Origin: Bowmanella denitrificans | GTDB lineage: Bacteria; Pseudomonadota; Gammaproteobacteria; Enterobacterales; Alteromonadaceae | Reading direction: 5' to 3' | DNA: 64,000 nucleotides | Assembly: GCF_002887595.1 (NCBI RefSeq) | Contig: NZ_PEBU01000004.1 | Coordinates: 186,001 to 250,000 of the forward strand | Shown here: positions 1 to 42,867 of the stretch, one piece after another | Position numbering within the stretch: position 1 is the stretch's first letter | Layout: the number at the start of each line of letters is the position of its first letter | The notes under the pieces: model-generated | Told to the model about the DNA's origin: nothing | Seen by the model: the letters and a program-made list of their open reading frames with translations, nothing else | Database searches by the model: none | Program-made: the position numbers and the translations under genes

Positions 1-2454
1 GCCGCGCACATCAAGGTGATGAATATCCTCAGTGGCCAGACCGATATCCTGACGGGCATACCGGCAAACGGGCGACCGGAGGAAATTGGTGGTGACAGGC
101 TGGCAGGGTTGTTTCTAAACACGCTGCCATATCGGTTCAAATTAAAAAAATGCAGTTGGCAGGCACTTTGTCAGCAGGTGTTTGCTCAGGAAAGAAAGTT
201 ACTCCCTTACCGGCGCTATCCTTTTGCCGCCATTCAACGTGATGCCGGCGGGCAAGGGCTGCTGGATGAAGTGCTGTTTAACTTTCTGGATTTCCATGTA
301 TACAACGAACTGGATCCGGAACTGGGGCTGACGGCCAGTAACCCGTTGGACAAAGAGCAGGTGAATGAAGGCACCAACTTTACCCTGAGTGTGCACTTTC
401 AGCATCTGACACTGACATCCAATCTGCAGCGCAAACAGCTGTCACTGGATATCGATTATGACGCCAATAAGCTCACCGAGCAGCAGGCCGATTTACTGGC
501 AGATACCTACAATGCGGTATTGTCTGCCATGGCACGTCAGCCGGGGGCCCTGCACCTGGATAGCGAACTTGTGCCCCGCCAGTGGCAGGCGCCCTGTATG
601 GAGCAGGATTATCCGGACGTTCCCGATATCCTGGCCTTATATCATGCGCAGCGACAACTATCGGCAGATACGCCGGTTATTCTGGAAGCCGACAAGCGTT
701 TAAGTTTGTCCGAACTGGAAACCCAATCCAATCGACTGGCCAATTTTTTGCTGGCCCAGGGCGTCGCCAAGGGCCAATACATTGGTTTGATGTTACCCAG
801 AGGCACGGCATTTATTGTCACCATGCTGGCCATCGTAAAAACCGGGGCCGCCTATCTTCCCCTTGACCCAGATGAACCCGATGCCAGGTTGCAAAGCATA
901 CTGACACAAAGTGCTGCGTCTTTTGTGTTGTCACATTCAAGTCATTGGCCAGCAGAAAGGTTGACGGTACTGGCTGGCAGCACCTTGTGCTGTGTGGACG
1001 AAAAAGTCTCTGTAATTAGCGCTTACAGCAAGGATGACCCTGGTATCCGGCGGACGGCAGAAGATCCGTTGTATCTGATGTTTACCTCTGGTTCCAGCGG
1101 TCATCCCAAAGGGGTGATCATTCCAGACCGAGGGGTGGTCAGGTTACTGCATGAAGCAGACTATGTACCACTGAATCATCAAAGCAGAATACTCCATCTG
1201 GCACCGGTGACCTTTGATGCTGCAACCTTTGAAATTTGGTCGGCATTACTCTGTGGTTGTCAGTTGGCCATTTATCCGCCTGCCGTACCTAGCATTGCAT
1301 TAATATCCCAATACATCCGCGAGTTTGGCATTACTACGGCGTTTTTTACCACGTCTTTATTTAATACCTTGGTGGATGAAGACGCTGAGGTCTTAGCCGG
1401 CATGCAACATGTGTTGATCGGTGGTGAGGCTTGCTCCACTGAGCATGTTTTGCGTTGCCAACAACGGTTGCCCGATGTGCAACTGCACAACGCCTACGGC
1501 CCCACCGAATGCACCACCTTTGCCCTGACCCATGCTATCGCGCCCTTGTCAGGTGATCAGACTAACGGTATTCCCATTGGTCTGCCAATCAATCGTACCT
1601 GGGCCAAGGTTTTGGATCCACTAGGCCAGGAGGTACCGGTGGGCACACCGGGTGAACTGTATCTGGGCGGTGATGGCCTGGCGCTGGGGTATCTGCATCA
1701 GGAGGCGTTAACCAACCAGCGATTTGTCAAACTGGCAGGTAGGCGCTGGTATCGCACTGGTGATCAGGTTTGCTGGCTGACCACCGGCGAATTGCAGTTT
1801 GTAGGACGTCTGGATGCGCAGGTTAAAATCCGCGGTTTCCGTATTGAACCGGGAGAAGTGGAAGCGGTACTGCAGAAAATAGAAGGCGTTGCTCAGGCGG
1901 TTGTGGATGTGCAGGGTAACGGATCCAACCGCCACCTTGTGGCTTACTGTGTCGGCAAATATGACCAGTCATTGGCGGAAGACTGGCTGCGTGGCAAGCT
2001 GGCTGAAAAGTTACCGCGTTATATGCTGCCGCAGCATTTTGTGGCTATGTCTAACCTGCCGCTGAATGTGAATGGCAAAGTTGACCGACGAAAATTGCCC
2101 GCACCTGTCATTCTGGAGCAACAGGATGACAATCTGCCTTTATCAAATCTGGCCGCCCAAGTGCTGCAAACCTGGCAATCCCTGCTGGGGCGTGAGGATA
2201 TCGGTTGCAAAGACAACTTCTTTGATGTGGGCGGACACTCCCTGCTGTTGATGCGACTACTGCAACAGCTACGACGACAAGGTCTGACACTGAGCATGCT
2301 GGACTTGCTTGAACACCCTAGTGTCGATGCGCTTTGTCAGTATTTACAAGGCAGTGAAGCCGAGTTTTGTGCTCAGACTGATGTACGACATGGCCGCAAC
2401 CGCCTCAAAAATCAAGCCTCGCAGCGCCGTTCTGGTGTTTTGTTAAAGGAATAA
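1..2454 (+). CDS. NRPS, final module: condensation (partial)-adenylation-PCP
   Basis: The frame is open from base 1, so the gene starts upstream and only its last 817 residues are here. Residues 1-190 are the end of a condensation domain (LTGIPANGRP, LFLNTLPYRF). Residues about 215-700 are an adenylation domain: A3 core LMFTSGSSGHPKGV near base 1075, A4 FDAATFEIW, NAYGPTE, and A10 NGKVDRRKLP. A PCP follows with DNFFDVGGHSLLL; the pantetheinylated Ser is codon 2239-2241. Read against the GrsA numbering, the specificity residues are D-A-F-F-L-G-A-T-F-K, closest to signatures for branched aliphatic residues (Val/Ile). No thioesterase is present, so the chain should pass to the PKS encoded 4 bases downstream. 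Family and domains are certain; substrate is an inference from a hand alignment. Confidence 0.95.
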   Translation, partial: AAHIKVMNILSGQTDILTGIPANGRPEEIGGDRLAGLFLNTLPYRFKLKKCSWQALCQQVFAQERKLLPYRRYPFAAIQRDAGGQGLLDEVLFNFLDFHVYNELDPELGLTASNPLDKEQVNEGTNFTLSVHFQHLTLTSNLQRKQLSLDIDYDANKLTEQQADLLADTYNAVLSAMARQPGALHLDSELVPRQWQAPCMEQDYPDVPDILALYHAQRQLSADTPVILEADKRLSLSELETQSNRLANFLLAQGVAKGQYIGLMLPRGTAFIVTMLAIVKTGAAYLPLDPDEPDARLQSILTQSAASFVLSHSSHWPAERLTVLAGSTLCCVDEKVSVISAYSKDDPGIRRTAEDPLYLMFTSGSSGHPKGVIIPDRGVVRLLHEADYVPLNHQSRILHLAPVTFDAATFEIWSALLCGCQLAIYPPAVPSIALISQYIREFGITTAFFTTSLFNTLVDEDAEVLAGMQHVLIGGEACSTEHVLRCQQRLPDVQLHNAYGPTECTTFALTHAIAPLSGDQTNGIPIGLPINRTWAKVLDPLGQEVPVGTPGELYLGGDGLALGYLHQEALTNQRFVKLAGRRWYRTGDQVCWLTTGELQFVGRLDAQVKIRGFRIEPGEVEAVLQKIEGVAQAVVDVQGNGSNRHLVAYCVGKYDQSLAEDWLRGKLAEKLPRYMLPQHFVAMSNLPLNVNGKVDRRKLPAPVILEQQDDNLPLSNLAAQVLQTWQSLLGREDIGCKDNFFDVGGHSLLLMRLLQQLRRQGLTLSMLDLLEHPSVDALCQYLQGSEAEFCAQTDVRHGRNRLKNQASQRRSGVLLKE

Positions 2455-2458
2455 AAAG

Positions 2459-5400
2459 ATGGATATGGATACTGAATTGGATATTGCCATTACCGGCCTG
2501 GCCTGCCGCTTCCCCGATGCCAGTGATGCGCAGACGTTTTGGCGTAATATTTTCGAAGGGCATGAATCCATCAGGACACTCAGCGATGAAGAGCTACAGG
2601 AAGCTGGCATAGATAAGGCTGTGCTGGCGGATCCTGACTATGTCAACAGCGGTTCCTTTCTGGATGATATCGATCAGTTCGACGCAGCGCTTTTTGGCTA
2701 CTCAGCAAAAGAAGCCGATTTGATGGATCCCCAGCATCGGTTGTTTTTGCAGACCGCCTGGGAAGCCTTGGAAAGCTGTGGCCATGCTCCGGACAATACC
2801 CCATTGCGTATTGGCGTGTATGCTGGCTGTTCAGGTAGCTCATACCTGAGCGATGCGCTCAGCGGACAGGGCCTGTCCGCTGAACAGATCCGGGACCTTT
2901 GTTATGAAAATAACTCGGATCTGATGGCCAGCCGGGTGGCGTACAAGCTCAATCTGAAGGGGCCTGCGGTGACATTGGGCACGGCCTGCTCAACCTCTCT
3001 GGTGGTAATACACCAGGCTTGCCAGGCGCTTATTGCCGGTGAGTGCGATATGGCGATTGCGGGTGCAGCGAGAGTGAGTGTGCCGCAAAAGAGTGGTTAT
3101 CATTATGCCCAGGGCGGCATATTGTCGCGTGACGGCAAGTGCCGAGCCTTTGATGCCGGTGCTTCTGGCACTATTTCTGGCAGCGGTGCCGGTGCCATTA
3201 TCCTTCGTCCACTGGATCAGGCGCTGATGGATGGCGACCCTATTTTTGCGGTGATCAAAGGCTCTGCTATCAACAATGACGGCGCGCGTAAACTGGGATT
3301 TACTGCGCCTTCCGTGGACGGACAGGCCGATGTGATCACCCAGGCCCTGAATGCGGCAAATGTGCAGCCGCAAAGTATTGGCTATGTTGAAGCCCATGGC
3401 ACGGCTACCGCGCTGGGCGACCCTATTGAAGTGAAGGCGCTGACCAAGGCTTACCGACAATACACCGCTGAAACCGGGTTTTGTGCCATAGGCTCGGTAA
3501 AAGCCAATATCGGACACCTGGATACTGCAGCTGGTATGGCGGGCATTATCAAGCTGTGTGGCGCATTTGCACGTAAACAGTTGCCGCCCAGTATCAATTA
3601 TTCCCGTGCTAACCCTGAAATCGATTTTGCTTCGTCGCCGTTTTTTGTGAATACCCAGCCTGGCGATTGGGAAAGGGTTCCCCGTCGGGCAGCGGCCAGT
3701 GCCTTTGGCATTGGCGGCACCAATGCGCACGTAATTCTGCAGGAACCCCCCGTGCAGGAAAGCTCTGCCTGGGCCAGACATGTGCAGCTGCTGTGTTTTT
3801 CTGCCAACAGTCAGTCCGCGCTGCAGGAAAATATGGCCCGCTTTGCCAGGCATCTGGCTGAGCACAAACCACTGTCATTGCCGGATGCGGCTTACACCTT
3901 ACATGTGGGGCGAACCCTGCTGCCTTATCGCGCCAGTCTAACCGCTGCAGATGTGAATCAGGCGTTGCAAAAACTCAATGAACCCGGCATGCGAGACATT
4001 CAACGCACCTTGTCTAAGCAAAGTCACAGCAAACTGGCAATGATGTTTTCCGGCCAGGGCGCCCAATATGTCTCGATGGGGGCAAATTTGTATGACACTG
4101 AACCTGAATTCAGGGCCATTCTTGATCAATGCGCGCGCCTCGCCGCCCCGCATTTGCAGGGCTACGATCTGCTCACCCTGATGTTTGATAAAACGTCGGA
4201 AAATGCACAACGACTGACCGATACAGCTTTTGCCCAGCCTTGCTTATTTGCGCTGGAGTACGCTCTGGCCATGTTTTTGCAAAGCCTTGGCGTTAAGGCG
4301 CAAACCTTTATCGGTCACAGTCTGGGTGAATATGTCGCGGCTTGTCTGTGCGGTGTATTTACGTTGTCGCAAGCCATTGAACTGGTTTGTTTACGAGGCC
4401 GCCTGATGGCAAAAATGGCACCTGGCCGTATGCTGGCGGTGCAAGCCGATGAGCACTTCTTACTACCCTTTTGTTGCGCAGATGTGGTGATTGCTGCCCG
4501 CAACAGCCCGGCTTCACTGGTGCTGGCCGGGCCGGCTCCTGCCCTGGAAGAGGTTGCTGAGCGTCTGCAACAACAGGACGTGGATTGTCGCTGGCTAAAA
4601 ACCTCCCATGCCTTTCATTCACCCATGATGGAGCCTTGTCTGGCCGAGTATGGCGCCGCTCTGGATAGTATGACGCTGTGCCCGCCAACCCGACCCTTTA
4701 TTTCCAATTTGAGCGGTCAGTGGGCGTCCCCGAGAGATGTCTGTCAATCTGCTTACTGGACGGCCCACCTGCGTCACAGTGTCAATTTCAGCCAGGGAGT
4801 GGCAACCTTGCTGGCGGAAGGTTATCAGTTGCTGGAGGTGGGACCGGGTAAAGCCTTGGCGACATTGGCTGCCATGCAACTGGAACCGGGTGCCGGTACG
4901 GTGCCATATTGTCTGCCTGGTGCCAAGGAACAAGTGTCGGATTTTGAACAAATCGCCAGTGCAGTCGGTGCGTTGTGGCGACACGGCGTTAATGTTGACT
5001 GGTCGCGCTTTTATCAGGGGCAGCAACGTCGCCGGGTAGCCCTGCCGACCTATGCTTTTGAACAAGGCCGATACTGGCTGCGGCGCAGTGCCTCAAATTC
5101 AGTGCGCAATGAGCATAGTCGTCAACCACTGCATAACTGGTTTTATCGCGCCACCTGGCAACGCAACGAGTTGCCGCCGGCGTCTGCCAGGCTGGATGGC
5201 GATATCCTTTGTCTGGTCGACACCCCCAGACGCTGGCAGGGGCTGCTGGACAATCTGGTGAGCCAGGGACTGCGCGTTACCTTGGTGTACAGTGGCAGGG
5301 CATTTAGCCAAAAAGGGCAATCTCTTTTCAGTATTAATCCAGGCCACTATGGGGATTTTGAGGCCTTATCTGCTGAACTGGCACGCCAGGGGCGTGTTCC

Positions 5401-6982
5401 TTCAATGATCCTGCACACCTGGGCCTTTGGTCGCCAGTCAGGGCAGGCGCAGTTACAGGATCATACCTTCCATAGTTTGTTGTATCTGGCCAAAGCACTC
5501 AGCAGTCATGCTGCAGAGCAGAAAATGGCCTTGTTGATTCTGACCCGTCAGCTTTTTGCGCCGGATGGCCACGAGCCCTGCGACGCTTCTCAGGCATTGG
5601 TGCTTGGCCCTTGTCGGGTCATTGCCAGGGAGTTTGATATGCTGTCCTGTCGGGTGCTGGATTTACCCGGTGAGCGGGCGATGGCAGAAAATACCAACCG
5701 ACAGGCCGTGGTGCGCGAGTTACTGCATTGGCAAACGCAAAACTGGGCACAGTATCCCCATGTCGCCATCCGTCAGGCAAAGCGCTATATGGAGGAATAT
5801 CAAGCGGTTAACTTGCAGCCGGTGGATAACCAAAGCCCCTATCGTCAGGGGGGCTGCTACCTTATCAGTGGCGGCTTCGGCGGCATTGGTGCCACATTGG
5901 CCAGACATTTATGTAAAGCCTATCAGGCCAAAGTGATCCTGCTAAGTCGACGCGCACTGCCGCCACAGAGCAAATGGCAAAGCTGGCTGGACAGTCATGA
6001 CGAACAGGAGTCTATTACCCGAAATATCCGCCTGATGCAGGAATTACGCGAGTCGGGGGGGCATCCGGTGGCAGTGGATGTGGATGTGTCCGACTTTAAA
6101 GCGCTCAAAAAGGCCATGGGTGTCGTAGTCCGGCAGACCGGGCCGGTGCATGGCATTTTTCACAGTGCCGGTATTGCTGATGGAGCATTGATCCAATCCC
6201 GTCAGGCGCTGGAATCACAGCAGGTGTTCAGCGCTAAAGTGATGGGTAGCCAGGCGCTACTGACCCTGTTTCGCAACAGCACACTGGATTTTTTTGTACT
6301 CTGTTCTTCACTGTCGGCTCAGATTGGTCCTGTCGGACAGGTTGCCTATTGTGCTGCAAACGCTTATCAGCAAGTGTTAGCGCAACAATACGCGGCACAG
6401 TTACCGATAAAGAGTATTGGCTGGGATTCCTGGCGTGAGGTCGGCATGGCGGTAGACAGTCTGCGTGCTCAGCGCGGTGATAAAGAAGATGCACTGGAAG
6501 CCATTCGCCACGGCATACTGCCCGAGGAAGGGATAGAGGTGGTTCAGCGTGTTCTGGCCTATGACTATCCGGATGTTGCCGTATCAACGCGGCCATTAGC
6601 ACAGGTATATGCCGGACAGGATAGTGCCGAGTCCCGTGCGGATGATAGCGACGTTTACAGCCAGTACCACGGACGTCCAGATTTGGCGTCTGAATTTCAG
6701 GCACCGGCGGGGGAGCTACAAGAGCGCCTTGCCCGTCTGTGGCAGGATAGATTCGGCATCGCGCCCATTGGTGTCAAAGATGATTTTTTTGAGCTGCATG
6801 GACATTCACTGATGGCCGTGCAAATCGTTACTGACATCAAGCGGCACTTTGCCGTGACGTTACCATCAGGCGTGCTGTACGAGCATCCTACTATCGCTTC
6901 GCTGGCCCTATTGTTGGCGCAGCGTCTGGCCGCCCAGGGTGACGGTGTAACGTCAGTGAACAAAACCACTATCAGGTTATAG
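2459..6982 (+). CDS. Type I PKS, one module: KS-AT-KR-ACP
   Basis: A 1507-residue modular polyketide synthase that adds one malonate unit to the upstream peptidyl chain and reduces the beta-keto group. The KS (1-430) has Cys177 in GTACSTS, His313 in EAHGTA and His353 in NIGHLD. The AT (about 530-830) has Ser621 in GHSLGEY and the HAFH motif typical of malonyl-CoA selection. The KR has the nucleotide loop GGFGGIG near residue 1137 and the catalytic Tyr in QVAYCAANAY. The ACP carries Ser1450 in GHSLM. There is no DH, ER, methyltransferase or TE, so a beta-hydroxy acyl-ACP is expected. AAGGA lies 7 bases before the ATG and the gap from the NRPS stop is 4 bases, indicating one operon. It corresponds in position to the PKS of fabclavine and zeamine clusters. 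Confidence 0.95.
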   Translation: MDMDTELDIAITGLACRFPDASDAQTFWRNIFEGHESIRTLSDEELQEAGIDKAVLADPDYVNSGSFLDDIDQFDAALFGYSAKEADLMDPQHRLFLQTAWEALESCGHAPDNTPLRIGVYAGCSGSSYLSDALSGQGLSAEQIRDLCYENNSDLMASRVAYKLNLKGPAVTLGTACSTSLVVIHQACQALIAGECDMAIAGAARVSVPQKSGYHYAQGGILSRDGKCRAFDAGASGTISGSGAGAIILRPLDQALMDGDPIFAVIKGSAINNDGARKLGFTAPSVDGQADVITQALNAANVQPQSIGYVEAHGTATALGDPIEVKALTKAYRQYTAETGFCAIGSVKANIGHLDTAAGMAGIIKLCGAFARKQLPPSINYSRANPEIDFASSPFFVNTQPGDWERVPRRAAASAFGIGGTNAHVILQEPPVQESSAWARHVQLLCFSANSQSALQENMARFARHLAEHKPLSLPDAAYTLHVGRTLLPYRASLTAADVNQALQKLNEPGMRDIQRTLSKQSHSKLAMMFSGQGAQYVSMGANLYDTEPEFRAILDQCARLAAPHLQGYDLLTLMFDKTSENAQRLTDTAFAQPCLFALEYALAMFLQSLGVKAQTFIGHSLGEYVAACLCGVFTLSQAIELVCLRGRLMAKMAPGRMLAVQADEHFLLPFCCADVVIAARNSPASLVLAGPAPALEEVAERLQQQDVDCRWLKTSHAFHSPMMEPCLAEYGAALDSMTLCPPTRPFISNLSGQWASPRDVCQSAYWTAHLRHSVNFSQGVATLLAEGYQLLEVGPGKALATLAAMQLEPGAGTVPYCLPGAKEQVSDFEQIASAVGALWRHGVNVDWSRFYQGQQRRRVALPTYAFEQGRYWLRRSASNSVRNEHSRQPLHNWFYRATWQRNELPPASARLDGDILCLVDTPRRWQGLLDNLVSQGLRVTLVYSGRAFSQKGQSLFSINPGHYGDFEALSAELARQGRVPSMILHTWAFGRQSGQAQLQDHTFHSLLYLAKALSSHAAEQKMALLILTRQLFAPDGHEPCDASQALVLGPCRVIAREFDMLSCRVLDLPGERAMAENTNRQAVVRELLHWQTQNWAQYPHVAIRQAKRYMEEYQAVNLQPVDNQSPYRQGGCYLISGGFGGIGATLARHLCKAYQAKVILLSRRALPPQSKWQSWLDSHDEQESITRNIRLMQELRESGGHPVAVDVDVSDFKALKKAMGVVVRQTGPVHGIFHSAGIADGALIQSRQALESQQVFSAKVMGSQALLTLFRNSTLDFFVLCSSLSAQIGPVGQVAYCAANAYQQVLAQQYAAQLPIKSIGWDSWREVGMAVDSLRAQRGDKEDALEAIRHGILPEEGIEVVQRVLAYDYPDVAVSTRPLAQVYAGQDSAESRADDSDVYSQYHGRPDLASEFQAPAGELQERLARLWQDRFGIAPIGVKDDFFELHGHSLMAVQIVTDIKRHFAVTLPSGVLYEHPTIASLALLLAQRLAAQGDGVTSVNKTTIRL

Positions 6983-6984
6983 GC

Positions 6985-8658
6985 ATGCATATGGTGGCAT
7001 TCAATGCGTTACTTGATGAGTTGTCGCAGCGGCAGATCCGTGTCTGGCTGGAAGGCGATGAATTGATGGTAGAGGGACCAGAGCAGGCACTGGACAACAG
7101 CATAAGGGACAGGCTCAGCCAGCATAAAACGCAACTGAAGCAATTTCTGCAGGATGAGCAACACCCATTGCTGCAACCGGCAGGCAGCTTTCCCTTAAGT
7201 CATGCTCAGTTATGTTTCTGGTTTGTCTATTTCATGATGGGAGAAACAGCCAACAACCTGTCACGGCTAATCATACATGGACCGCCTCAGCATGCCTTGC
7301 TGGAGCGTTGTATCAGCAACATTGTGGCTGCCAATGACAGCCTGCGAGTTCGCATCGGCAGCCTTATTCCTAGGCAAAAAGTTCAGACCTTACCCCCTTT
7401 TTGTTTACCTTTTAATGACTTACGCCATATGGAAGAGGCAGAGCAGGAGGCCTTTGTGCAGCAACTGGTCAGCGACTTTATGCGGCCTTTTGATCTGAGT
7501 AAACCGCCTTTGCTGCGAAGTCACCTTGTGCAACTGACAGATAATCAATCTCTGCTGCTGTGCAGTTTTGCCCACATCATTCTTGATGGCGCCGGGTTGT
7601 ACTTGTTTGAACAACAACTGATGTCAGCATACCGCCAGGCGCTGACTGGACAAGCCAGTGTGCAGAAACGTCCATTGCAGATTGCCACGGCGGTGGCCAG
7701 GGAGCGCCGCGCCGCACAGTGCAGTTTCGCCAGCCAATCGTCATTCTGGCAGGCTCGTCTGGATGGCTTTTCCCGCACTATCTGGCCGCTGACGCACTTG
7801 GCGGACAAAGGGCCGTCAGAGCATTTTGATCGTAACGTCAAACTAACTCAGGACATGATGCAATACCTGCATGAGTTGTCTGTCAGCAGTCGCTGTTCCA
7901 TACAGATGTTGCTGGTGGCTGTGGTCGCTCATGCGGTGGGGCAGGTCACGCAGCAACCAAGGGTATTGCTTAACTCTGTTCTTGAGAACCGCGTTGCTGA
8001 TGGCTCGCGCACTTTACTGGCGCCTTGCCTGTATCAGTTGCCTGTGCCGTTGCATCTGGGGGGAGAAATAGAAGCGTTACTGGAACAGGTTAAGAAACAC
8101 AATGTTGAAGCTATGGACAAGCTAGACATTCCTTTTAGCGTGCCCTTGGGGATGGTAGCCCGCCAACGCTGGCGCGGCAAATACAATGGCTGGCTTGCCG
8201 GGATGATCATGCGCCTGAGTCGTGCTCTTGCCAAATTGATGCCGGTCGCCAACCTGTATCCAAGTTATTGGGCCGATTATTTGTTCACGCTCAATCCGCC
8301 GTTTAACGATCCGACACTGCCGCGCGGTTACCGACGTAAGAAGGTGGCCGATCCCATCATCAACGTCAATATGCTGCAAAGTGTCTACCAGCCACAAAGT
8401 GGTGAGGAAAAGCAAATCATCGAAGTATTAACCGACAAACACCGTTTTTTGCCTGCTCAGGCCCTGGATGGCGAATGGGAGGACGAAACCATTAATTTCT
8501 ATATTGTTGCCGATGGCGTGGAGGGAACCATGTTTCGTATTACCTGTAGTTGCCTCAGCCCATTGGGGATAGATGCCCTGGAACGTCAGCTGAACCAGAG
8601 TCTGGCGCTTTTGCTGCGACCTCAATCTTCTTCTAATTCTTGTATAGGTGGTTTATGA
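6985..8658 (+). CDS. Free-standing condensation-domain protein with TubC-type docking segment
   Basis: 557 residues. Residues 1-52 (LLDELSQRQIRVWLEGDELM) look like a TubC N-terminal docking domain, which usually binds the C-terminus of the preceding megasynthase. Residues about 65-545 form a single condensation domain. The HHxxxDG motif reads AHIILDG: the first His is Ala, but the catalytic second His (His197) and the DG are kept. There is no A or PCP domain. In fabclavine biosynthesis a similar stand-alone condensation protein (FclL) joins the PKS-bound acyl chain to the free polyamine, and that role is inferred here. The start is 2 bases after the PKS stop; a second Met at 6991 is also possible. 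An alternative is a fatty-acyl starter condensation enzyme, less likely given its position after the last ACP. Confidence 0.85.
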   Translation: MHMVAFNALLDELSQRQIRVWLEGDELMVEGPEQALDNSIRDRLSQHKTQLKQFLQDEQHPLLQPAGSFPLSHAQLCFWFVYFMMGETANNLSRLIIHGPPQHALLERCISNIVAANDSLRVRIGSLIPRQKVQTLPPFCLPFNDLRHMEEAEQEAFVQQLVSDFMRPFDLSKPPLLRSHLVQLTDNQSLLLCSFAHIILDGAGLYLFEQQLMSAYRQALTGQASVQKRPLQIATAVARERRAAQCSFASQSSFWQARLDGFSRTIWPLTHLADKGPSEHFDRNVKLTQDMMQYLHELSVSSRCSIQMLLVAVVAHAVGQVTQQPRVLLNSVLENRVADGSRTLLAPCLYQLPVPLHLGGEIEALLEQVKKHNVEAMDKLDIPFSVPLGMVARQRWRGKYNGWLAGMIMRLSRALAKLMPVANLYPSYWADYLFTLNPPFNDPTLPRGYRRKKVADPIINVNMLQSVYQPQSGEEKQIIEVLTDKHRFLPAQALDGEWEDETINFYIVADGVEGTMFRITCSCLSPLGIDALERQLNQSLALLLRPQSSSNSCIGGL

Positions 8659-11361: not shown

Positions 11362-11588
11362 GCGTATGCATCCTTGTTCTTGTTGCAGCGAATCTGCCAG
11401 CAGCTTATCCAGTTGTACCTGGGCTGACAAGCATATGCCTTAACTATTCCCGCTGTGTCAGCAGCATATGCCGCCAAGACCGCACCTCTGTGCTGCAATA
11501 GCGACAAACGCTGACATAGCCTTGCACATATAGACGGCAGCCCACGGGTAACATGGTGCATGACATTATGTTGATAAAGGAGATAAAC

Positions 11589-30667: not shown

Positions 30668-30680
30668 TCGGAGAACCTCA

Positions 30681-31373: not shown

Positions 31374-31378
31374 AGAAA

Positions 31379-34875: not shown

Positions 34876-34942
34876 CTGTTTTAATCTGCTTTTTAACTGC
34901 TCAGCCCGTGGTCAAGCGTATTGAACACCACGCAATACTATT

Positions 34943-36412
34943 ATGGAGTTAGCATTGTTTGTCAGCCAAGCAAAGGCCCCGTTAACAGCGGCCGCCAGAT
35001 GCCTTGTCATGGCCATATTGCTGTGCGGGATAAACGCCTGCGTATCGCATCCTGCACATGATGAGCAAAACCACTTGCCCGCTGGTTGGTTAGCGGATAG
35101 CTGGCAACATGCGCGGGATGTTACGCCTGTTGCCAGACAAGTGGAAACAACCATCTTCAGCCAGATTCAATCAGCTCAACTGCAGGACTTAATTGATCAG
35201 GCACTGAATAACAATTTTGCCCTGGAAGGAAACCGACTGGATGTGCTGGCCTTTGCACTGGCCAGTAAACAGGTGGATGGACAACGCTTGCCGGATATTC
35301 AATTGCAGGGACAAGCTGACCGGGAAAAGGCCCTGTATGAAGAGGAACCTTTATATACCAAAGGATATGCCCTTGGTCTGGTGCTGGAATGGGAGCTTGA
35401 CCTGTGGGGACGCTTGCATCAGCAAAGTCTGGCACAGCGGGCTGAGCTGGACGCCATGCGGGCCGATTATCAGGCCGCCAGACAGTCGCTGATTGCTCTG
35501 GTAACCCGTACCTACCTGGATATGTGGCAATTGTCGGCATTGCTGGAACTACAGCGCCAGCGGTTGGCTATCTATACCGAGTTGCAGCAGATTGCCGAAG
35601 AGCAATATAAAAGTGGTCTCAGCAATTTGCAGGACTGGTCACTGGCAGCCCTGCAAGTACAAGAAACACAGGTTCGTGTTACCGCATTAGAAGAGCAATT
35701 CCAGGCCAGCGAAATGCAACTGGCGGTGCTGCTTGGAAAAACGCCGGGTCCGTTGAACTTCTCTGCCACCTTGCCGGATATTCGTTCCCCGGTGTTATCT
35801 GTACCGGCCATGGTGCTTGTCCGTCGTCCCGATGTGCAGGCTGCATTTCAGCGCCTGATGGGCAAGGGATACGAAAAAACGGCGCAGTACAGAGCGCTGC
35901 TACCGACCATCAGTCTCAGTGCCAATACGGCCAGAAAGGCGGACCGCCTGGGCGGGCTTGGTGGCGCAGAAACGGTATGGGCACTGGTAGGCGGTATCAG
36001 CCAGTCCCTGCTGCTGGCTGATTTGGCGGATGCTGGCCCCTTGTCGTTGGCGAGAGCCACAAGCATTCAGGAACAGGCTGAGAAGCAGCGCTATCTGCAG
36101 GTGGTACTGGATGCCATGCTGGAAGTGGAAAATGCCCTGCTCAGGGAGCGTTCTCTGGTCACCCAGGGCCGACAATTGCAACAGGCCGTCAAACTGGCAG
36201 ATGAACTGTATCAGGATTATCGCGCGCGTTATCAAAGTGGTCTGGTTAACTTATTGGATCTGCTGACTATTCAGGAACAATCACTGGCAGCCAGAGAAGC
36301 CCTGTTGGAAAACCAGGCTCAGCATGTGCACAACCGAGTGTTGCTGGGATTGGCAATGGGTCTGGGTGAACCAGACTCCGTGGCAAAAGCAAAGGAGAAC
36401 ACGGCCTTATGA
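34943..36412 (+). CDS. TolC/NodT-like outer-membrane efflux lipoprotein
   Basis: 489 residues with a lipoprotein-type signal (ILLCGINAC) and two TolC-like repeats rich in helix (SQVEVEN-like and LLDLLTIQEQSLAAREALLEN). It forms the outer-membrane channel of a tripartite pump. The gene overlaps the next by 4 bases (ATGA). The ATG at 34943 has no good ribosome site; a TTG at 34955, in frame and 6 bases after GGAG, is an alternative. The lipoprotein signal survives in either case. Confidence 0.9.
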   Translation: MELALFVSQAKAPLTAAARCLVMAILLCGINACVSHPAHDEQNHLPAGWLADSWQHARDVTPVARQVETTIFSQIQSAQLQDLIDQALNNNFALEGNRLDVLAFALASKQVDGQRLPDIQLQGQADREKALYEEEPLYTKGYALGLVLEWELDLWGRLHQQSLAQRAELDAMRADYQAARQSLIALVTRTYLDMWQLSALLELQRQRLAIYTELQQIAEEQYKSGLSNLQDWSLAALQVQETQVRVTALEEQFQASEMQLAVLLGKTPGPLNFSATLPDIRSPVLSVPAMVLVRRPDVQAAFQRLMGKGYEKTAQYRALLPTISLSANTARKADRLGGLGGAETVWALVGGISQSLLLADLADAGPLSLARATSIQEQAEKQRYLQVVLDAMLEVENALLRERSLVTQGRQLQQAVKLADELYQDYRARYQSGLVNLLDLLTIQEQSLAAREALLENQAQHVHNRVLLGLAMGLGEPDSVAKAKENTAL

Positions 36413-37611
36413 AATTAACTGGCTGGTTGAAACAAAGGGCCTGGCCCATAGCTATTGTGACGCTGGTGCTGTGTGTCATGTTGGTGGTGCTGGATGAGGT
36501 GGAAAAACACCAACTGCAGGTCAGGCAGCAGGCCAAGCCGACAGGAGCTGTGTTGCCGGTAGTCAGTGTCACTCAGGTTAAACCGCGCCAGTTGACGCTG
36601 GATGTCAAAGTGCTGGCCAGGCTAAAACCACGCTATCAAAGTCTTATCAGCAGTCAGGTTGATGGCCATATTGTCGGTTTTAGCGAACGTTTGCAGGAAG
36701 GCGTTGTTGTTGAAGCCGGTGAGGCACTGCTGCAGCTTGATGACAGTGAATACCAGGCACAGCTTGACCAGGCCAAAATGGAGCATGCTCAGGCCCAGGT
36801 CGCGTTCTTAACCGAGCAACGTATGGCCAGGCAGGCGTCCAGAGACTGGCAACGAAGCAATCAAGGCCAACCTGACTCGCCACTGGTTCTCAGACAGCCG
36901 CAACTTGAAGCGGCGAAAATGACTGAGCAGGCAGCCCGTACTAACTTAAAGCGCGCTGAAACGCTGTTGTCCTATACCCGTATCGAATCGCCTTACCGTG
37001 CCGTGGTGTTAAAGCGACATGTTAACCCCGGCGAAATGGTTGGCAGTGGCCAGGCATTGGTGGAGATCATGTCTGTGGATGAATTTGAGTTGGTCGTGGC
37101 CTTGAATGACAAACAATGGCAGTTATTGGCTGACGACTGGCAACATAGACAGGCACGGCTGCGCGATCCCCTCAGCGGGCAGGTTTGGCAGGCAGGGATC
37201 CGCAATGCCGGTTACTTCTACGACAACGACACCCAGTTACGTAATTTATATCTGAGCATGGCCAATCAAGGTGCTGATGGCGGCTTGTTACCCGGGCGAT
37301 TACTGGAAGTCAGTTTGCCCGGGCAACAAGTGCAGGATGTGCTGCAGATCCCCGAATCGGCCTACACCAGAGACGCGCATATCTGGTTGTTGGGACAGGA
37401 TAACCGCTTGGAGAAAATGACACCGGAAATCCTGGCCGTGATGGACGATAGCCTGGTGGTAAGGCCACCAGGTCAATCGCCTGGGACTTTCCGAATTGCC
37501 CTGTTTCCCCAGTCTCAGTTTACCGTCGGTCTTAAGGTCAACCCAACCGAGCCGGATAGTTTGAACGGCAATGCGGCGCAGGTCGCAGCCCTGTCCGGGG
37601 CCATACAATGA
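36409..37611 (+). CDS. RND membrane-fusion (adaptor) protein
   Basis: 400 residues with one N-terminal membrane anchor (AWPIAIVTLVLCVMLVVL). The adaptor layout is clear: lipoyl-like half VDGHIVGFSERLQEGVVVEAGE, a helical hairpin at about 115-190, second lipoyl half YTRIESPYRAVVLKRHVNPGE, then beta-barrel domains. It links the inner-membrane RND pump to the outer-membrane channel. Overlaps of 4 bases at both ends show it is translated as one unit with its partners. AAAGGAG lies 11 bases before the ATG. Confidence 0.93.
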   Translation: MKLTGWLKQRAWPIAIVTLVLCVMLVVLDEVEKHQLQVRQQAKPTGAVLPVVSVTQVKPRQLTLDVKVLARLKPRYQSLISSQVDGHIVGFSERLQEGVVVEAGEALLQLDDSEYQAQLDQAKMEHAQAQVAFLTEQRMARQASRDWQRSNQGQPDSPLVLRQPQLEAAKMTEQAARTNLKRAETLLSYTRIESPYRAVVLKRHVNPGEMVGSGQALVEIMSVDEFELVVALNDKQWQLLADDWQHRQARLRDPLSGQVWQAGIRNAGYFYDNDTQLRNLYLSMANQGADGGLLPGRLLEVSLPGQQVQDVLQIPESAYTRDAHIWLLGQDNRLEKMTPEILAVMDDSLVVRPPGQSPGTFRIALFPQSQFTVGLKVNPTEPDSLNGNAAQVAALSGAIQ

Positions 37612-40600
37612 AAGGACTGGTACGCTGGTTTGTGGCCAATCCGGTGGCCGCCAATATGCTGATGCTGGTAATACTGGCATTTGGATTACTCAGCGCCTGG
37701 ACCATGCGCATAGAAGGTTTTCCGCGTATACCGCCCGATACCGTGGAAGTGAGTGTGGTGCAAATCGGTGCCAGTACCCAACAGGTCCATCAATCTATCA
37801 CTCAAAGTCTGGAACAGGCCCTGGAAGGTCTGCCAGGTGCCAAACAGATCTCCAGTTTGTCCGGTGACAGTCTGGCCACGGTTTATATACGTCAGCAGGA
37901 CGGCTATGACCTGGGGCGGTTGTTAGAAGATGTAAAACTGCGCATCGACAATATTACGACCTTGCCGCTGGCGGCTGAACGCCCCCAGGTCAGGCGCGCT
38001 GAATTCAGTTATCCGGCCATGATTGTGCAGGTTTATGGTGACGTGGCACAGGAGGAGCTGCAAAAAGCCGCCAGGATCATTAAGCAGCGCTTGTTACTGC
38101 GCCCGGAAATATCGCAGATAAATCAATGGGGGGAACGCCCCCATGAGATTTCTCTTGAGATCAGCCATCACAAGTTACAGGCTCATGGTTTGCGGTTCGA
38201 ACAGGTGGCACAGATGCTGAGCCAGGCTAGTCTTGAATACCGCACCGGGCAGTTGAAAACCGTCGGTGGGCGCATTCAAATTCGTGCTGACCATCTGGCT
38301 CGTGATGTGCGTGAGTTTATGCAGTTGCCGTTGTTTACCAGTGCCGAGGGCCATGTGGTGCGTTTGGCCGATGTGGCCGAGATTCGTGACCAACCCGAAG
38401 ACGATGATCTGCTGGTCACCTTTAACGGCCATCCGGCGATTGGTTTTGAAATCATGATGGGGCAGCAGGACAATCTGCTGGACATTAATCAGGCTGTTCA
38501 GCAGGTGGTGGCAGAATCCGAAGACATTCTGTCTCAGCGCATCAAAGCGGATATCTGGGCCAATCAAAGCGAATTTGCCACGCAGCGCCTGAGTTTGCTG
38601 CAAAGCAATGCGCTGCAGGGACTGATTCTGGTGTTTTTGATCCTGAGTCTGTTTCTGAATATTAAAGTCGCCTTTTGGGTGGCGGTGGGTATTCCTGTCA
38701 GTCTGGCCGGTACCATTGCCATAATGGATCTGTATTTTGGTTACTCGCTGAATGACATTACCACCTTTGGCATGATTATCGTGCTGGGGATCCTGGTGGA
38801 TGATGCGGTGGTGATAGGTGAGAGCGTGCATCACGGTCGACAGTCAGGTGGCGATCCGCACCAAGCCACGGTTGCCGGGGTGGAAAAAGTGGCGACCGCC
38901 ACGGTATTTGGCGCATTTACCACCCTGGCAGCGTTTTTTCCCATGACGGTGCTAGAGGACCCTTTTGGCAAAGTCTTTGGTAGCTTTGCGGTGGTGGTAA
39001 TGATTGCCCTGGTGTTTTCACTACTGGAAAGTAAGCTCATTTTGCCCAGTCACCTGGCTTCCGCCAATTTTGCCAGCAACGAACGGGAAAATATGTTTGC
39101 CAGGGGGCTGAAGTTTCTGCAATTAAAGGCTGAGTGGGGGTTGTCCTATGTCACCGAACACTGGTATCAACCCTTATTGCAACATTGCCTTCGCTATCGT
39201 GCCACCACACTGATCCTGTTCACATTGGTGTTGCTGTTTGCGTTTAGTTTGCTGTCAATTGGGGCTATTCGTACCACGTTCTTTCCCGATATTCCCGGCA
39301 ATATCATCAGCGTGAAACTGGAAACCGACAGTCGCCTCAATCAGCAAGTCACGTTACAAAATGCCCGGCAAATATTGCATCAGGCTGAAAAACTGAATCA
39401 GCAGTGGACCAATGAGTTTGGCCTGACAACGCCGCCTTTTGCCAAACTGATGCTGGCCGTTGTTGGACCCTCCAGTGCCGAAATCTATGCAGAACTTTCT
39501 GCCACAAGTGAACGCCCAATGGATACCATGAGCATGCTGGATAGTTGGCGGGATCATGCCGGGCAACTGGAAGGTGCGCAGAAAGTGGTGTTTACGGTGG
39601 CCGAAGAAACCACTGGTGGTTTTGAGCTTGAGGTGTTTGGCCCGGATCCTGAAGGTGTCAAGGCGGCAGTGCAACAAGTGGTTGACGGGCTGCACCAAGT
39701 GCCACACGTTTCGGATGTGGCCAGCGATTTACAGTCCGGTAATGCAGAATTACGTTTGCGACCAACCCAGGCCGGAATGAATCTGGGGGTGGACGTCGCT
39801 TTACTGGCGGCACAACTGGGTGATGCCTATGGTGGCCTGGAACTGCAGCGTTTCCAGCGCGGAATGGACGAGGTGAAGGTCTATCTGCGTTATCCGCAAG
39901 AGGACAGAGACAGTCTGTCTGACCTGCTGCATCAGCAAATTCAGTTACCTGGCGGACAATGGGTGCCTTTGCTCAGTGTCGCTGAACTGGATGCGGGCTA
40001 TGTGCCGCGTTGGATGTGGCGACGGGATTTTCAGGATGCAGCTACCGTAACCGCCAATATCGACAAGCGGCACAGCGCTTCACCTGAAGTGTATGGGCAG
40101 TTAATGCAAGGGCAACTGGCTGACTGGTTGTCAGCACATCCCTCAATCAAAGTGATGCCTGCCGGCGAGCTTAAGCGCGAAGAGGAAATGGCAGACAAAC
40201 TCTGGCGCGCCTTGATTCTGGCTTGTTTGCTCATCTATGTGCTACTGGCCATTCCGCTTAAATCCTATTGGCAGCCGTTGATCATCTTGTCAGTGGTACC
40301 CTTTGGTTTTGTGGGAGCGGCCATTGGGCATATGCTGATGGGCCTGCCTTTTAGTGTGCTGTCATTTTTCGGCATGCTGGCTCTGACCGGTGTGGTGGTT
40401 AACGACAGTCTGCTACTGGTGACCAGCTATAACCGCTATTGTGCCGAGGGCAAAGCGAATCCACTGGTGAGTTCTGCAACCGGCAGGGTCAGGGCGGTAT
40501 TTCTGACCACGGCCACCACCGTCATAGGTTTGGCCCCCATCCTGCTGGAAAGCTCAGAACAGGCTCAGTACCTTATTCCTGCGGCCGTGTCCCTGGCCTT

Positions 40601-40730
40601 TGGTGAACTTTTTGCCACCCTGGTGACCCTGATTTTAGTGCCGGTACTGGCCAGCTTTTACCGGGTTGCTCCTGTGAGCACCAAGGTTAACGAGGCTTTG
40701 CCATTGCCTGAGGCGTTTGAGAGAGCTTGA
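37608..40730 (+). CDS. RND-family efflux pump, inner-membrane subunit
   Basis: 1040 residues, the usual length. It has 12 membrane segments, two large periplasmic loops, and the proton-relay acids in GILVDDAVVIGESVHH. ILVPVLASFYRV ends the last helix. Such pumps expel amphipathic or cationic drugs from the periplasm. Following a PUFA-polyamine cluster, it is a good candidate for export and self-resistance; producers of zeamine are known to need an RND pump for tolerance. It forms an operon with the adaptor and channel genes, and a two-component system follows 122 bases later. Confidence 0.95.
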   Translation: MKGLVRWFVANPVAANMLMLVILAFGLLSAWTMRIEGFPRIPPDTVEVSVVQIGASTQQVHQSITQSLEQALEGLPGAKQISSLSGDSLATVYIRQQDGYDLGRLLEDVKLRIDNITTLPLAAERPQVRRAEFSYPAMIVQVYGDVAQEELQKAARIIKQRLLLRPEISQINQWGERPHEISLEISHHKLQAHGLRFEQVAQMLSQASLEYRTGQLKTVGGRIQIRADHLARDVREFMQLPLFTSAEGHVVRLADVAEIRDQPEDDDLLVTFNGHPAIGFEIMMGQQDNLLDINQAVQQVVAESEDILSQRIKADIWANQSEFATQRLSLLQSNALQGLILVFLILSLFLNIKVAFWVAVGIPVSLAGTIAIMDLYFGYSLNDITTFGMIIVLGILVDDAVVIGESVHHGRQSGGDPHQATVAGVEKVATATVFGAFTTLAAFFPMTVLEDPFGKVFGSFAVVVMIALVFSLLESKLILPSHLASANFASNERENMFARGLKFLQLKAEWGLSYVTEHWYQPLLQHCLRYRATTLILFTLVLLFAFSLLSIGAIRTTFFPDIPGNIISVKLETDSRLNQQVTLQNARQILHQAEKLNQQWTNEFGLTTPPFAKLMLAVVGPSSAEIYAELSATSERPMDTMSMLDSWRDHAGQLEGAQKVVFTVAEETTGGFELEVFGPDPEGVKAAVQQVVDGLHQVPHVSDVASDLQSGNAELRLRPTQAGMNLGVDVALLAAQLGDAYGGLELQRFQRGMDEVKVYLRYPQEDRDSLSDLLHQQIQLPGGQWVPLLSVAELDAGYVPRWMWRRDFQDAATVTANIDKRHSASPEVYGQLMQGQLADWLSAHPSIKVMPAGELKREEEMADKLWRALILACLLIYVLLAIPLKSYWQPLIILSVVPFGFVGAAIGHMLMGLPFSVLSFFGMLALTGVVVNDSLLLVTSYNRYCAEGKANPLVSSATGRVRAVFLTTATTVIGLAPILLESSEQAQYLIPAAVSLAFGELFATLVTLILVPVLASFYRVAPVSTKVNEALPLPEAFERA

Positions 40731-40792
40731 AGGTATGGGTAGCGCGCGGAAAAGATTGATTCTCATTTGGTCATATCTTACTGTGATGACAG

Positions 40793-40817
40793 CTTGTCTT
40801 GGCTATTTGAAGGCAAG
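40793..40817 (+). other. Stem-loop between pump and response-regulator genes
   Basis: CTTGTCTT and AAGGCAAG pair (one G-U) around a 9-base loop. There is no T run, so it may be an operator or mRNA structure rather than a terminator. Confidence 0.3.
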
Positions 40818-40852
40818 AGGCTGCATCGGATTGTCACCAATGGAAAAGAGAG

Positions 40853-41542
40853 ATGAAAGGGACCATTGTCTTAGTTGAAGACGACAAACGCTTGTCGTCG
40901 CTGATTTGTCAGTTTTTGCAAAGCGAAGGATTTGAAATATTCCCACTGCATACTGGATTGGGGGCCTGTGAGGAAATTCAGCGCCTCAGTCCGGATTTGG
41001 TTATTCTGGATTATATGTTGCCAGAAATGGACGGCATTGAGATCTGCAAGTGTCTGAGGCCAAGGTACAGCTCTCCAGTGTTGATGCTGACCGCCAAAGA
41101 TGATGATTTTACCGAAGTGACCGCCTTTAACTGTGGTGTAGATGATTATATTGCCAAGCCGCTTCGTCCTCATGTGCTGATGGCCAGAATTTATGCTTTA
41201 TTGCGCCGACGTAAAGAGCAAGCCAGCAATGAAAATGTGATTTTTGCCCAGGACCTGCGTATCAATGTCGTTGACAGGGTTATTTACAAAGGGGATTTGG
41301 AAATTGACGCCACTGATGCCGAGTTTGATCTGCTGGTGGAACTGGTGAAGTCGGCGGGCAATATTGTGAAACGTGACCAACTGTTCAATTCATTACGCGG
41401 TTTTGAATATAACGGCACGGACCGCTCTGTCGATCAGCGGGTCAGCACATTGCGTAAAAAGCTAGGTGATCAGGATCCGCCACACCAATATATTCGTACG
41501 GTTCGAGGACGGGGTTACTTGTTTCCGCGTAACAAATGGTAA
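40853..41542 (+). CDS. OmpR/PhoB-type response regulator
   Basis: 229 residues. The receiver domain has the acidic pair DD at 10-11, phospho-acceptor Asp53 in VILDYMLPEMDG, Thr80 and Lys102 in DDYIAKP. The C-terminal winged helix (about 130-226) ends with the typical RTVRGRGYLF. It works with the kinase in the next gene, which overlaps its end by 7 bases. Position after the RND pump suggests that it controls the pump or the biosynthetic operon in response to envelope stress or to the product. Confidence 0.93.
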   Translation: MKGTIVLVEDDKRLSSLICQFLQSEGFEIFPLHTGLGACEEIQRLSPDLVILDYMLPEMDGIEICKCLRPRYSSPVLMLTAKDDDFTEVTAFNCGVDDYIAKPLRPHVLMARIYALLRRRKEQASNENVIFAQDLRINVVDRVIYKGDLEIDATDAEFDLLVELVKSAGNIVKRDQLFNSLRGFEYNGTDRSVDQRVSTLRKKLGDQDPPHQYIRTVRGRGYLFPRNKW

Positions 41543-42867
41543 TCTTTTTCCTGCGTTTTTTCGTAGGGGTAAGCTCGACATTGTTGATTTGCCTGGTATT
41601 GATTGGTTTCTTTTTCGAGAATCAATATGAGGATGCCATTGGTCAGGAACATCTGCGCCTGACCAGGGCGCTGACGGGGCTGTTATCCACTCGTATGTGT
41701 CATGTACCTGAACAGCAGTGGCCGGTTGAGATTGAGCAGTTGGCCGGCGAATATGCCTATACCATTGCGTTGACTGATATGGATAGCCTGCCTGCGGCCA
41801 AGCAACTGGCGCTGGTCAGCGATGGAGTGGTGGTATCGGTAGAAAGCGGTTTTATCAAGGATGCCGTGCGGGTTTATTACCCTAATCCCTGTGGCCGGGG
41901 CGTGATACGTTACATCCCTAATGTGGATTTCAACTCCTTTTACAATGTACTGATTGGTGTCACCTTGGGTTTTGTCCTGATCAGTTTTGCCCTGGCGGTG
42001 TTAATGCTGGCCTGGCCGATTATCAAGCACATTAACAACATGGTCAGCGCCAGTCTGGCGATTGCTGATGGACGCTTTGATGCCAAGGCCGACGAAGATG
42101 CTCCGGCCCCCCTGGACGAGCTGGCCCGCGCCATTAACTTTGTGGCCAATCAGATAAGCCAGTTAATCCAGGAACAGGAAGTGATGATCAGTGCGGCATC
42201 CCATGAATTGAATACGCCTGTGATGCGGTTGAACTTTGCATTGGAACTGGCAGATCGCATTGATGATCCTGAGGCACTAAAGGCACATGTGCGTAGCATG
42301 AAACTGGACATCGAGCAGCTTGAGCAGTTGGTGGTGGAAATGCTGGCGTATTCAAAATTCAGTTTTTACTCAGCCAAAGTCTACCCAGAGCCCTTACATC
42401 TGTTGCCTGTTATTGAACAGGCGCAGGAGCAGGCCAGTCGTTACAGTGACAAATTTGTGATTGAAATGGCATGTGACGCCGGGGTGGTGGTGCTGGCAGA
42501 AGAAAAGAGCTTGCTTAAGATCCTGAGCAATTTGCTCACCAATGCCCATAAATATGCCAAAGGCTATGCCAGGATAACAGCCACAGCCTTGGCAGATTGT
42601 ACCTGTATCACTGTGGATGACGACGGTCCTGGCATTCCTGAATCTGAACGACAGGCGGTTTTGCAACCTTTCTATCGGATTGAAAACAGCCGCAGCCGGG
42701 ATACTGGCGGAGTGGGGCTGGGACTGGCCATAGTAAATAAGGTTATGGCCTTGCATGGCGGGCGTCTGGAAATCGGCAGTAATGAATTTGGTGGCGCCAG
42801 TATCCAGTTGTATTTTCCTCTTCAACCCGTTCAGGGGGCCGCCCGAATGGCAACCCTGGCGCAATAG
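41536..42867 (+). CDS. Sensor histidine kinase (RstB/CpxA-like layout)
   Basis: 443 residues. The first membrane helix is at about 4-27, a periplasmic sensor loop of about 105 residues follows, and the second helix is at about 137-160. After HAMP, the HisKA box SAASHELNTPVMRL holds His223, and the ATP-binding domain has NLLTNAHKYAK, DDDGPGIPE and GVGLGLAIVNK. It phosphorylates the regulator encoded just upstream. The sensor loop has a Cys at each end (CHVPEQQWPVE and NPCGRG), which may form a disulfide. A stimulus cannot be read from the sequence; the context suggests the cluster's product or membrane damage. Confidence 0.93.
   Translation: MVIFFLRFFVGVSSTLLICLVLIGFFFENQYEDAIGQEHLRLTRALTGLLSTRMCHVPEQQWPVEIEQLAGEYAYTIALTDMDSLPAAKQLALVSDGVVVSVESGFIKDAVRVYYPNPCGRGVIRYIPNVDFNSFYNVLIGVTLGFVLISFALAVLMLAWPIIKHINNMVSASLAIADGRFDAKADEDAPAPLDELARAINFVANQISQLIQEQEVMISAASHELNTPVMRLNFALELADRIDDPEALKAHVRSMKLDIEQLEQLVVEMLAYSKFSFYSAKVYPEPLHLLPVIEQAQEQASRYSDKFVIEMACDAGVVVLAEEKSLLKILSNLLTNAHKYAKGYARITATALADCTCITVDDDGPGIPESERQAVLQPFYRIENSRSRDTGGVGLGLAIVNKVMALHGGRLEIGSNEFGGASIQLYFPLQPVQGAARMATLAQ

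What the first reader, a model, noticed from the sequence alone, without database searches (positions are those of the whole stretch)
1..42867. A zeamine/fabclavine-like PUFA-polyamine/NRPS/PKS hybrid cluster in a probable Alteromonadales-like genome
The sequence directly shows PfaA-, PfaC- and PfaD-like proteins, an aminotransferase fused to the reductase, an SDR, a thioester reductase, an NRPS module, a KR-only PKS module and a stand-alone condensation protein, with exporters. This is the gene set known for zeamines (Serratia, Dickeya) and fabclavines (Xenorhabdus). The extra genes (fatty-acid hydroxylase, exported penicillin acylase, unknown membrane protein, DUF3108-like protein) suggest a new member of this broad-spectrum antibiotic group in another lineage.
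Basis: partly seen in the sequence, partly recalled or inferred. Interest (0 to 1): 0.88.

Follow-up and report, generated by a model that had tools for sequence, protein, structure and literature searches.

The report
Zeamine-type antibiotic cluster in Bowmanella
A marine bacterium carries a full set of genes of the kind that makes the zeamine antibiotics; published genome mining has already reported such a cluster in this strain, but its product has not been shown.

Summary
The genome (5,479,914 bp, 39 contigs) matches the Bowmanella denitrificans JL63 draft in both numbers. The cluster runs 19.3 kb upstream of the window: a FemAB/GNAT-like gene, a sulfotransferase, and two NRPSs with six A domains in all. 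Its biosynthetic genes match the published Serratia zmn set in class and size. Four of six A-domain codes equal the published zmn codes, one differs at one position, the last at three. A motif read as the module-3 epimerase and the odd CHxxxDG condensation motif are also shared. The ER part groups with aminotransferase-linked ERs (94/93). The genome has one PfaD only. The cluster is a 63.2-kb insertion between two genes that are neighbours in three of four congeners. A June 2026 paper already lists a zeamine-like cluster in JL63, so the core finding is known. Details I add, found in no paper passage I read: the ends of the insertion; accessory genes not named in the Serratia table; and a collinear Pseudoalteromonas cluster with near-identical A codes. 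The product is unproven.

The parts
1..2454 (+). 3' part (817 aa) of NRPS2 (Zmn17-like, 2165 aa; the gene begins 4044 bp upstream of the window): rest of the second C domain, then A and T; A6 code DAFFLGATFK. The C motif CHPVFDG of this module (residue 1231) lies just upstream of the window
2459..6982 (+). PKS module KS-AT-KR-ACP (Zmn18-like, 1507 aa), AT motif HAFH read as malonyl type (recalled rule)
6985..8658 (+). stand-alone condensation protein (Zmn19-like) with TubC-type N-terminal docking domain; motif AHIILDG
8640..9632 (+). membrane protein of an unnamed family (330 aa; possibly the Zmn9 counterpart, untested); a relative lies beside an alpha/beta hydrolase in Pseudoalteromonas caenipelagi
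9615..10367 (-). EntD-type 4'-phosphopantetheinyl transferase (Zmn5 class)
10330..11430 (-). alpha/beta hydrolase with a hydrophobic N-terminus and lipobox-like sequence (lipobox rule recalled); candidate prodrug hydrolase (Zmn22 class; orthology not tested)
11553..13994 (+). penicillin-acylase family hydrolase with signal-like N-terminus, nearest solved relative D-succinylase; catalytic Ser motif GSN present
14321..21127 (+). PfaA-like KS-AT-ACP-KR-DH (Zmn10-like, 2268 aa), one ACP
21167..25528 (+). PfaC-like KS-CLF-FabA dehydratase (Zmn11-like, 1453 aa); CLF Cys replaced by Glu, as in Zmn11 (read by eye)
25548..28658 (+). PfaD-like enoyl reductase fused to class-III aminotransferase (Zmn12-like, 1036 aa)
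28655..29419 (+). SDR ketoreductase (Zmn13-like)
29432..30667 (+). thioester reductase (Zmn14-like)
30645..31373 (+). DUF3108-like protein just under Pfam's cut-off (25.9 against 26); a relative (27%) lies between TR and CN-hydrolase in 4 of 4 Chromobacterium loci; none named in the published zmn table
31379..32158 (+). carbon-nitrogen hydrolase (Zmn15-like)
32192..33853 (+). fused permease-ATPase exporter of the cyclic-peptide type; same slot in 4 of 4 Pseudoalteromonas loci
33946..34875 (+). fatty-acid-hydroxylase superfamily membrane protein
34943..36412 (+). outer-membrane efflux protein of an RND pump
36409..37611 (+). RND periplasmic adaptor
37608..40730 (+). RND inner-membrane pump; DesAB-like role inferred from position
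40853..41542 (+). OmpR-type response regulator
41536..42867 (+). sensor histidine kinase
42903..43769 (+). DUF6134-like protein with a signal-like N-terminus, last gene of the insertion
43880..45199 (+). M20 peptidase gene, first gene of the right flank (marks the end of the insertion)

Best explanation
This is a zeamine-type biosynthetic island in Bowmanella denitrificans JL63. PfaA, PfaC and ER-AMT with the SDR build a long chain from malonyl units; at set cycles the beta-ketone is transaminated instead of reduced, and the thioester reductase releases the chain as an aldehyde that is aminated (polyamino alcohol). In parallel the four-module and two-module NRPSs and the PKS module make a hexapeptide-polyketide of predicted order X-Phe-(D)Asn-Asn-Thr-Val/Ile plus malonate units. 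The free condensation protein joins the two by an amide bond. The product leaves by the ABC and RND exporters, and a periplasmic hydrolase trims the peptide so that the active antibiotic forms outside the cytoplasm. Shown: genes, domains, active-site motifs, A codes, relatives, insertion boundaries. Inferred from the zeamine literature: the order of chemical steps, product, export and trimming.
For: Biosynthetic gene classes and sizes match zmn (aa here/zmn): 4200/4169, 2165/2180, 1507/1531, 2268/2259, 1453/1439, 1036/1010, 254/255, 411/412, 259/259; the free C protein is longer, 557/439. A codes: 4 of 6 identical to the published Zmn16/17 codes, A5 one difference, A6 three. A motif placed as an E domain after module 3 and CHxxxDG in the last NRPS2 C domain, as published. 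Active-site motifs inspected are intact; CLF Cys replaced by Glu as in Zmn11. The ER groups with AMT-linked ERs (94/93), and 22 PfaD rows without AMT form another side (99/97). Only one PfaD in the genome. Published analysis places JL63 in the zeamine/fabclavine clade and hypothesises zeamine-like products.
Against: No product is known. The zmn ABC genes (separate ATPase and permease) have no counterpart among the island proteins scanned; the one ABC gene here is a fused exporter. In the CLF the first active-site His is kept, whereas in Zmn11 it is Tyr. A6 differs from Zmn A6 at three positions. Orthology of the hydrolase to Zmn22 and of the membrane protein to Zmn9 could not be tested: no Serratia sequence was reached. 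Several accessory genes are not named in the zmn table. The tree support at the key branch is just under the program's star level, and the window row has a long branch.
Confidence: 0.92

Rival explanations
1. A fabclavine-type cluster: the hexapeptide stays attached to the polyamine and is not trimmed.
For: The same core genes serve both; full-length fabclavines keep a hexapeptide.
Against: [quoted passage not shown] the A codes match zmn; the published hypothesis is zeamine-like.
Confidence: 0.08
2. A membrane-lipid PUFA (EPA/DHA) synthase beside an unrelated NRPS/PKS cluster.
For: PfaA- and PfaD-type models hit above their cut-offs.
Against: One ACP only, no PfaB-like gene among the proteins scanned, AMT fused to the ER; the ER groups with AMT-linked ERs; the whole set sits in one insertion.
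Confidence: 0.01
3. A zeamine relative whose end product is further tailored by the island's extra genes (sulfotransferase, FemAB/GNAT-like, fatty-acid hydroxylase, D-succinylase-like acylase), so that it is chemically distinct from known zeamines. This adds to the best explanation rather than excluding it.
For: All four genes lie inside the insertion. The sulfotransferase has an RSGTT-type motif (read; the motif is recalled) and the acylase its GSN site. None of the four is named in the published zmn table. The acylase is not a close copy of the acylases found in 4 of 4 congeners, which are 26-33% alike.
Against: Being in the island does not show a role; they could be cargo. FemAB, sulfotransferase and hydroxylase gave no hit in the crude ORF sets of 5 of 5 relatives' regions nor by tblastn in the 15 loci, so they are not core.
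Confidence: 0.2

Closest known systems
Zeamine cluster zmn of Serratia plymuthica RVH1 (PMC3547906: abstract and sections 7, 8, 9, 11 read)
   Same: Pfa-like trio with AMT-fused ER, SDR, TR, CN-hydrolase, 4+2-module NRPS with an E domain in module 3, PKS module, free C protein, EntD-type PPTase, a hydrolase; 4 of 6 A codes identical
   Different: Here the NRPS/PKS genes precede the Pfa-like genes; fused ABC exporter instead of separate ATPase and permease; RND pump and two-component pair in the island; sulfotransferase, FemAB-like, penicillin-acylase-family, hydroxylase and DUF3108-like genes not named in zmn; A6 code differs
Bowmanella denitrificans JL63 zeamine-like cluster, El Arnouki Belhaji et al. 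2026 (PMC13291983: outline, abstract, section 7 and two passages seen; supplement not seen)
   Different: The section read gives no boundaries of the JL63 cluster, no accessory genes and no product for it
Fabclavine cluster fcl of Xenorhabdus (PMC7214866: passages; PMC9113149: abstract, introduction and section 6)
   Same: Same polyamine and NRPS-PKS logic
   Different: An acylpeptide hydrolase could not be detected in fcl
Pseudoalteromonas clusters (CIP111854; P. caenipelagi, read from within NRPS1 onward)
   Same: NRPS, PKS, C, hydrolase, then PfaA-PfaC-ER_AMT-SDR-TR-CNhyd-ABC-RR-HK in the same order; CIP111854's five A codes equal A1-A5 here or differ at one position
   Different: Second NRPS has one A domain only; PKS module with no AT or KR hit in P. 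caenipelagi; two hydrolases, each followed by a membrane protein of the unnamed family in P. caenipelagi (in CIP111854 the ORFs in that slot were not compared); an acyltransferase-family gene in P. caenipelagi

Membership tests
zeamine-type cluster | PfaA, PfaC and PfaD-like proteins with a class-III aminotransferase fused to the ER | tested here: met
zeamine-type cluster | SDR, thioester reductase and CN-hydrolase directly after the Pfa-like genes | tested here: met
   one DUF3108-like gene lies between TR and CN-hydrolase
zeamine-type cluster | four-module and two-module NRPS with E domain in module 3 and matching A codes | tested here: met
   against the table: 4 of 6 codes identical, A5 one difference, A6 three. 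The E domain is read from its HHxxxD motif and place; no E-specific model was run
zeamine-type cluster | PKS module plus free-standing condensation protein | tested here: met
zeamine-type cluster | hydrolase that trims the prodrug (Zmn22) | tested here: inconclusive
   an alpha/beta hydrolase of that class is present; no Zmn22 sequence was available for comparison
zeamine-type cluster | makes a long polyamino-alcohol antibiotic | not testable with these tools
   needs culture and LC-MS; JL63 inhibits Vibrio parahaemolyticus, agent not identified in the genome paper
fabclavine-type cluster | same core without an acylpeptide hydrolase | tested here: inconclusive
   a hydrolase of that fold is present; its activity is unknown
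EPA/DHA synthase | PfaA with several ACPs, PfaB present, ER without aminotransferase | tested here: not met
   the several-ACP rule is stated in PMC3547906

The most novel reading that the evidence does not exclude
The island makes a sulfated and/or extra-hydroxylated zeamine held as a doubly protected prodrug: the FemAB/GNAT-like and sulfotransferase enzymes mask charge inside the cell, and two exported hydrolases (the alpha/beta hydrolase and the D-succinylase-like acylase, which might recognise the D-Asn) unmask it outside, while the two-component pair induces the RND pump on sensing the product.
Probability: 0.1. Interest if true: 0.55.

Novelty: already known. Interest (0 to 1): 0.3.

Why it matters
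Zeamines act broadly, and a shrimp-associated producer that inhibits Vibrio parahaemolyticus offers a direct test of what that inhibitor is. The insertion site and gene list give a clean set of deletions. The near-identical A codes in Bowmanella, Pseudoalteromonas CIP111854 and the published Serratia table suggest that the peptide leader is kept by selection although it is thought to be cut off.

Tried and rejected
Rejected: a true PUFA synthase. Penicillin acylase as a core part of the marine clusters: relatives 51-52% alike exist in 4 of 4 Pseudoalteromonas genomes searched, but none of these fell in the cluster regions read for CIP111854 and P. caenipelagi. Chromobacterium does carry a distant one (24-27%) after its polyamine genes in 4 of 4 loci.

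Led nowhere: an AlphaFold model of the membrane protein alone was poor (mean pLDDT 51.8), so no fold search was made. A search of 369 genomes drawn from the class, at a limit of E 1e-165, found only the window's own genome (1 of 369). In plasmids 0 of 9 matching records covered at least 80% of the protein. The scan of named genomes lists no Serratia, Dickeya or Xenorhabdus, although these are known producers: it works from two short peptide patterns and keeps 80 loci, so its list of carriers is incomplete and it failed as a positive control. Comparisons with those genera rest on published tables. PADLOC gave 0 families for 4 of 4 proteins. No inverted repeats within either end and no direct repeat of 8 or more bases between the two ends were found.

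Rows chosen for the tree: 36. L006 was dropped as the same genome as L034. Of the 69 named loci without AMT (L040-L108) I used 10. Two divergent PfaD-family rows (L019, L020) lie outside both sides. The fused rows alone are not one clade (2 changes; 4% of 200 bootstrap trees have them as one), because the two Rhizobiaceae rows lie among them. The program warned of long branches, the window row among them. The ORF calls are crude and missed known genes in Chromobacterium (SDR, TR) that one search shows. My T-domain motif matched only part of the T domains that Pfam reports.
Full report
What is there. The window is bases 186001-250000 of contig C4 of a 5,479,914-base, 39-contig genome. Those two numbers are exactly the published ones for Bowmanella denitrificans JL63, isolated from whiteleg shrimp and inhibiting Vibrio parahaemolyticus (PMC5887035, whole text). 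I take the strain as identified, by inference from these numbers. The gene products were checked with Pfam and NCBIfam.

The cluster is larger than the window. Upstream lie a 4200-aa NRPS with four A domains and a 2165-aa NRPS with two, preceded by a sulfotransferase and a FemAB/GNAT-like gene. The segment from after the CBS-domain gene to before the M20 peptidase gene is 63,220 bases. In three congeners (G001, G002, G004) the matching parts of those two genes lie only about 180-240 bases apart, while in JL63 they lie 63.3 kb apart; the fourth, G003, gave no informative match on the right side. So the cluster is one insertion. Of the 5 genus members searched only JL63 has a full-length ER-AMT; the best match in the four others is E 1.6e-56, to the aminotransferase half alone. 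Among the 98 genomes of that search 2 had a full-length match, JL63 and G021. No direct repeat of 8 or more bases between the ends was found. GC is 0.528 against 0.496 and 0.511 in the flanks.

Comparison with zeamine. The published zmn table and this cluster agree in biosynthetic gene classes and sizes. A-domain codes read at the standard GrsA positions (positions recalled; alignment, extraction; the final K is assumed) are DPRHLALLAK, DTWTIASVSK, DATKVGEVGK, DATKVGEVGK, DFWNVGMVHK and DAFFLGATFK. The published Zmn codes are DPRHLALLAK, DTWTIASVSK, DATKVGEVGK, DATKVGEVGK, DFWNIGMVHK and DALFIGGTFK. Four are identical, A5 differs at one position and A6 at three (read as Val/Ile type, a recalled rule). 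An HHxxxD motif that I read as an E domain follows module 3, and the last C domain of NRPS2 has CHxxxDG, both as reported for Zmn16/17. Active-site motifs inspected in the KS, AT, ACP, KR, DH, FabA-like, ER and AMT parts are intact; the CLF has Glu for Cys as in Zmn11, but keeps the His that is Tyr in Zmn11. The free condensation protein has AHxxxDG where Zmn19 has PHxxxDG.

Family tree. A tree of 36 ER domains puts the window with the nine other AMT-fused ERs (4 Chromobacterium, 1 Photorhabdus, 4 Pseudoalteromonas) and the two Rhizobiaceae ERs that lie beside a separate AMT, at 94/93, just short of the program's star. Another side, at 99/97 (starred), holds 22 PfaD proteins without AMT; two further divergent PfaD-family rows lie outside both. 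Long branches were flagged, so the exact sister of the window is unsure. The genome has a single PfaD-family hit, so no separate EPA/DHA synthase was found.

Relatives. A scan of named genomes kept 80 of 472 related stretches; 9 matched ER and AMT in one frame and 2 (Rhizobium rhizogenes, Agrobacterium salinitolerans) in adjacent frames. The scan lists none of the known producers Serratia, Dickeya or Xenorhabdus, so it is incomplete. CIP111854 has A codes DPRHMALLAK, DTWTIASVSK, DATKIGEVGK, DATKVGEVGK and DFWNIGMVHK. An earlier paper lists 'zeamine (17%)' for P. citrea S3895 in a table (PMC6581688, one passage). In Chromobacterium haemolyticum (80 kb read), R. rhizogenes and A. salinitolerans (60 kb each) no NRPS hit was found near the polyamine genes.

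Self-protection. In Dickeya an RND pump, DesABC, gives zeamine resistance (its desAB genes lie next to the zms cluster), and a response regulator, DzrR, induces it (PMC6538784 and PMC10052836, passages). Here an RND trio and an OmpR-type two-component pair are in the island, and CIP111854 has a 38% identical RND pump upstream of its NRPS. In the Dickeya study the ABC transporters of the zms cluster were ruled out as resistance genes, so the ABC gene here may serve export only. A DesABC-like role for the RND trio is inferred from position.

Extra genes. The penicillin-acylase-family protein is nearest, among solved structures, to D-succinylase (E 5.9e-186), has a signal-like N-terminus and a GSN site, and is 26-33% alike to acylases found in 4 of 4 congeners. 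The 330-aa membrane protein has no Pfam or NCBIfam family, but matches a protein beside an alpha/beta hydrolase in P. caenipelagi (E 2e-9), which in turn matches a second such protein beside a second hydrolase there (E 7e-20); the direct comparison with that second one gave nothing (E 0.40). I read it as a partner of the trimming hydrolase (inference).

Novelty. PMC13291983 (section 7) lists JL63 among clade I clusters and hypothesises zeamine-like products. A search for papers holding both 'bowmanella' and 'zeamine' found 1, that paper; 'zeamine' with 'sulfotransferase' found 0. Its supplement was not read, so the accessory genes may be drawn there. The finding is therefore real and correctly interpreted, but already in print; what remains open is the product, and the role of the genes that the zmn table does not name.

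Noticed in passing
L135-L138 (Pseudoalteromonas sp. CIP111854) and L025-L027 (P. caenipelagi): Zeamine-like clusters whose second NRPS has only one A domain; P. caenipelagi also has an extra NRPS with two A domains, codes DVEEIGGVTK and DVEEIGSVTK, and two hydrolase-membrane protein pairs.
   Followed up: partly
L131-L134 (Chromobacterium haemolyticum), L139-L141 (Rhizobium rhizogenes), L142-L144 (Agrobacterium salinitolerans): Polyamine-type Pfa operons with no NRPS hit nearby; in the two Rhizobiaceae the ER and the aminotransferase are separate frames, and the aminotransferase is about 71% identical to the window's.
   Followed up: partly
L029, L030, L031, L037: Chromobacterium operons carry a DUF3108-like gene between TR and CN-hydrolase and a distant penicillin-acylase-family gene downstream.
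   Followed up: no
window 51162-53426: 754-aa protein with three DUF6359 stretches and a weak OB-fold (BOF) match, outside the island.
   Followed up: no
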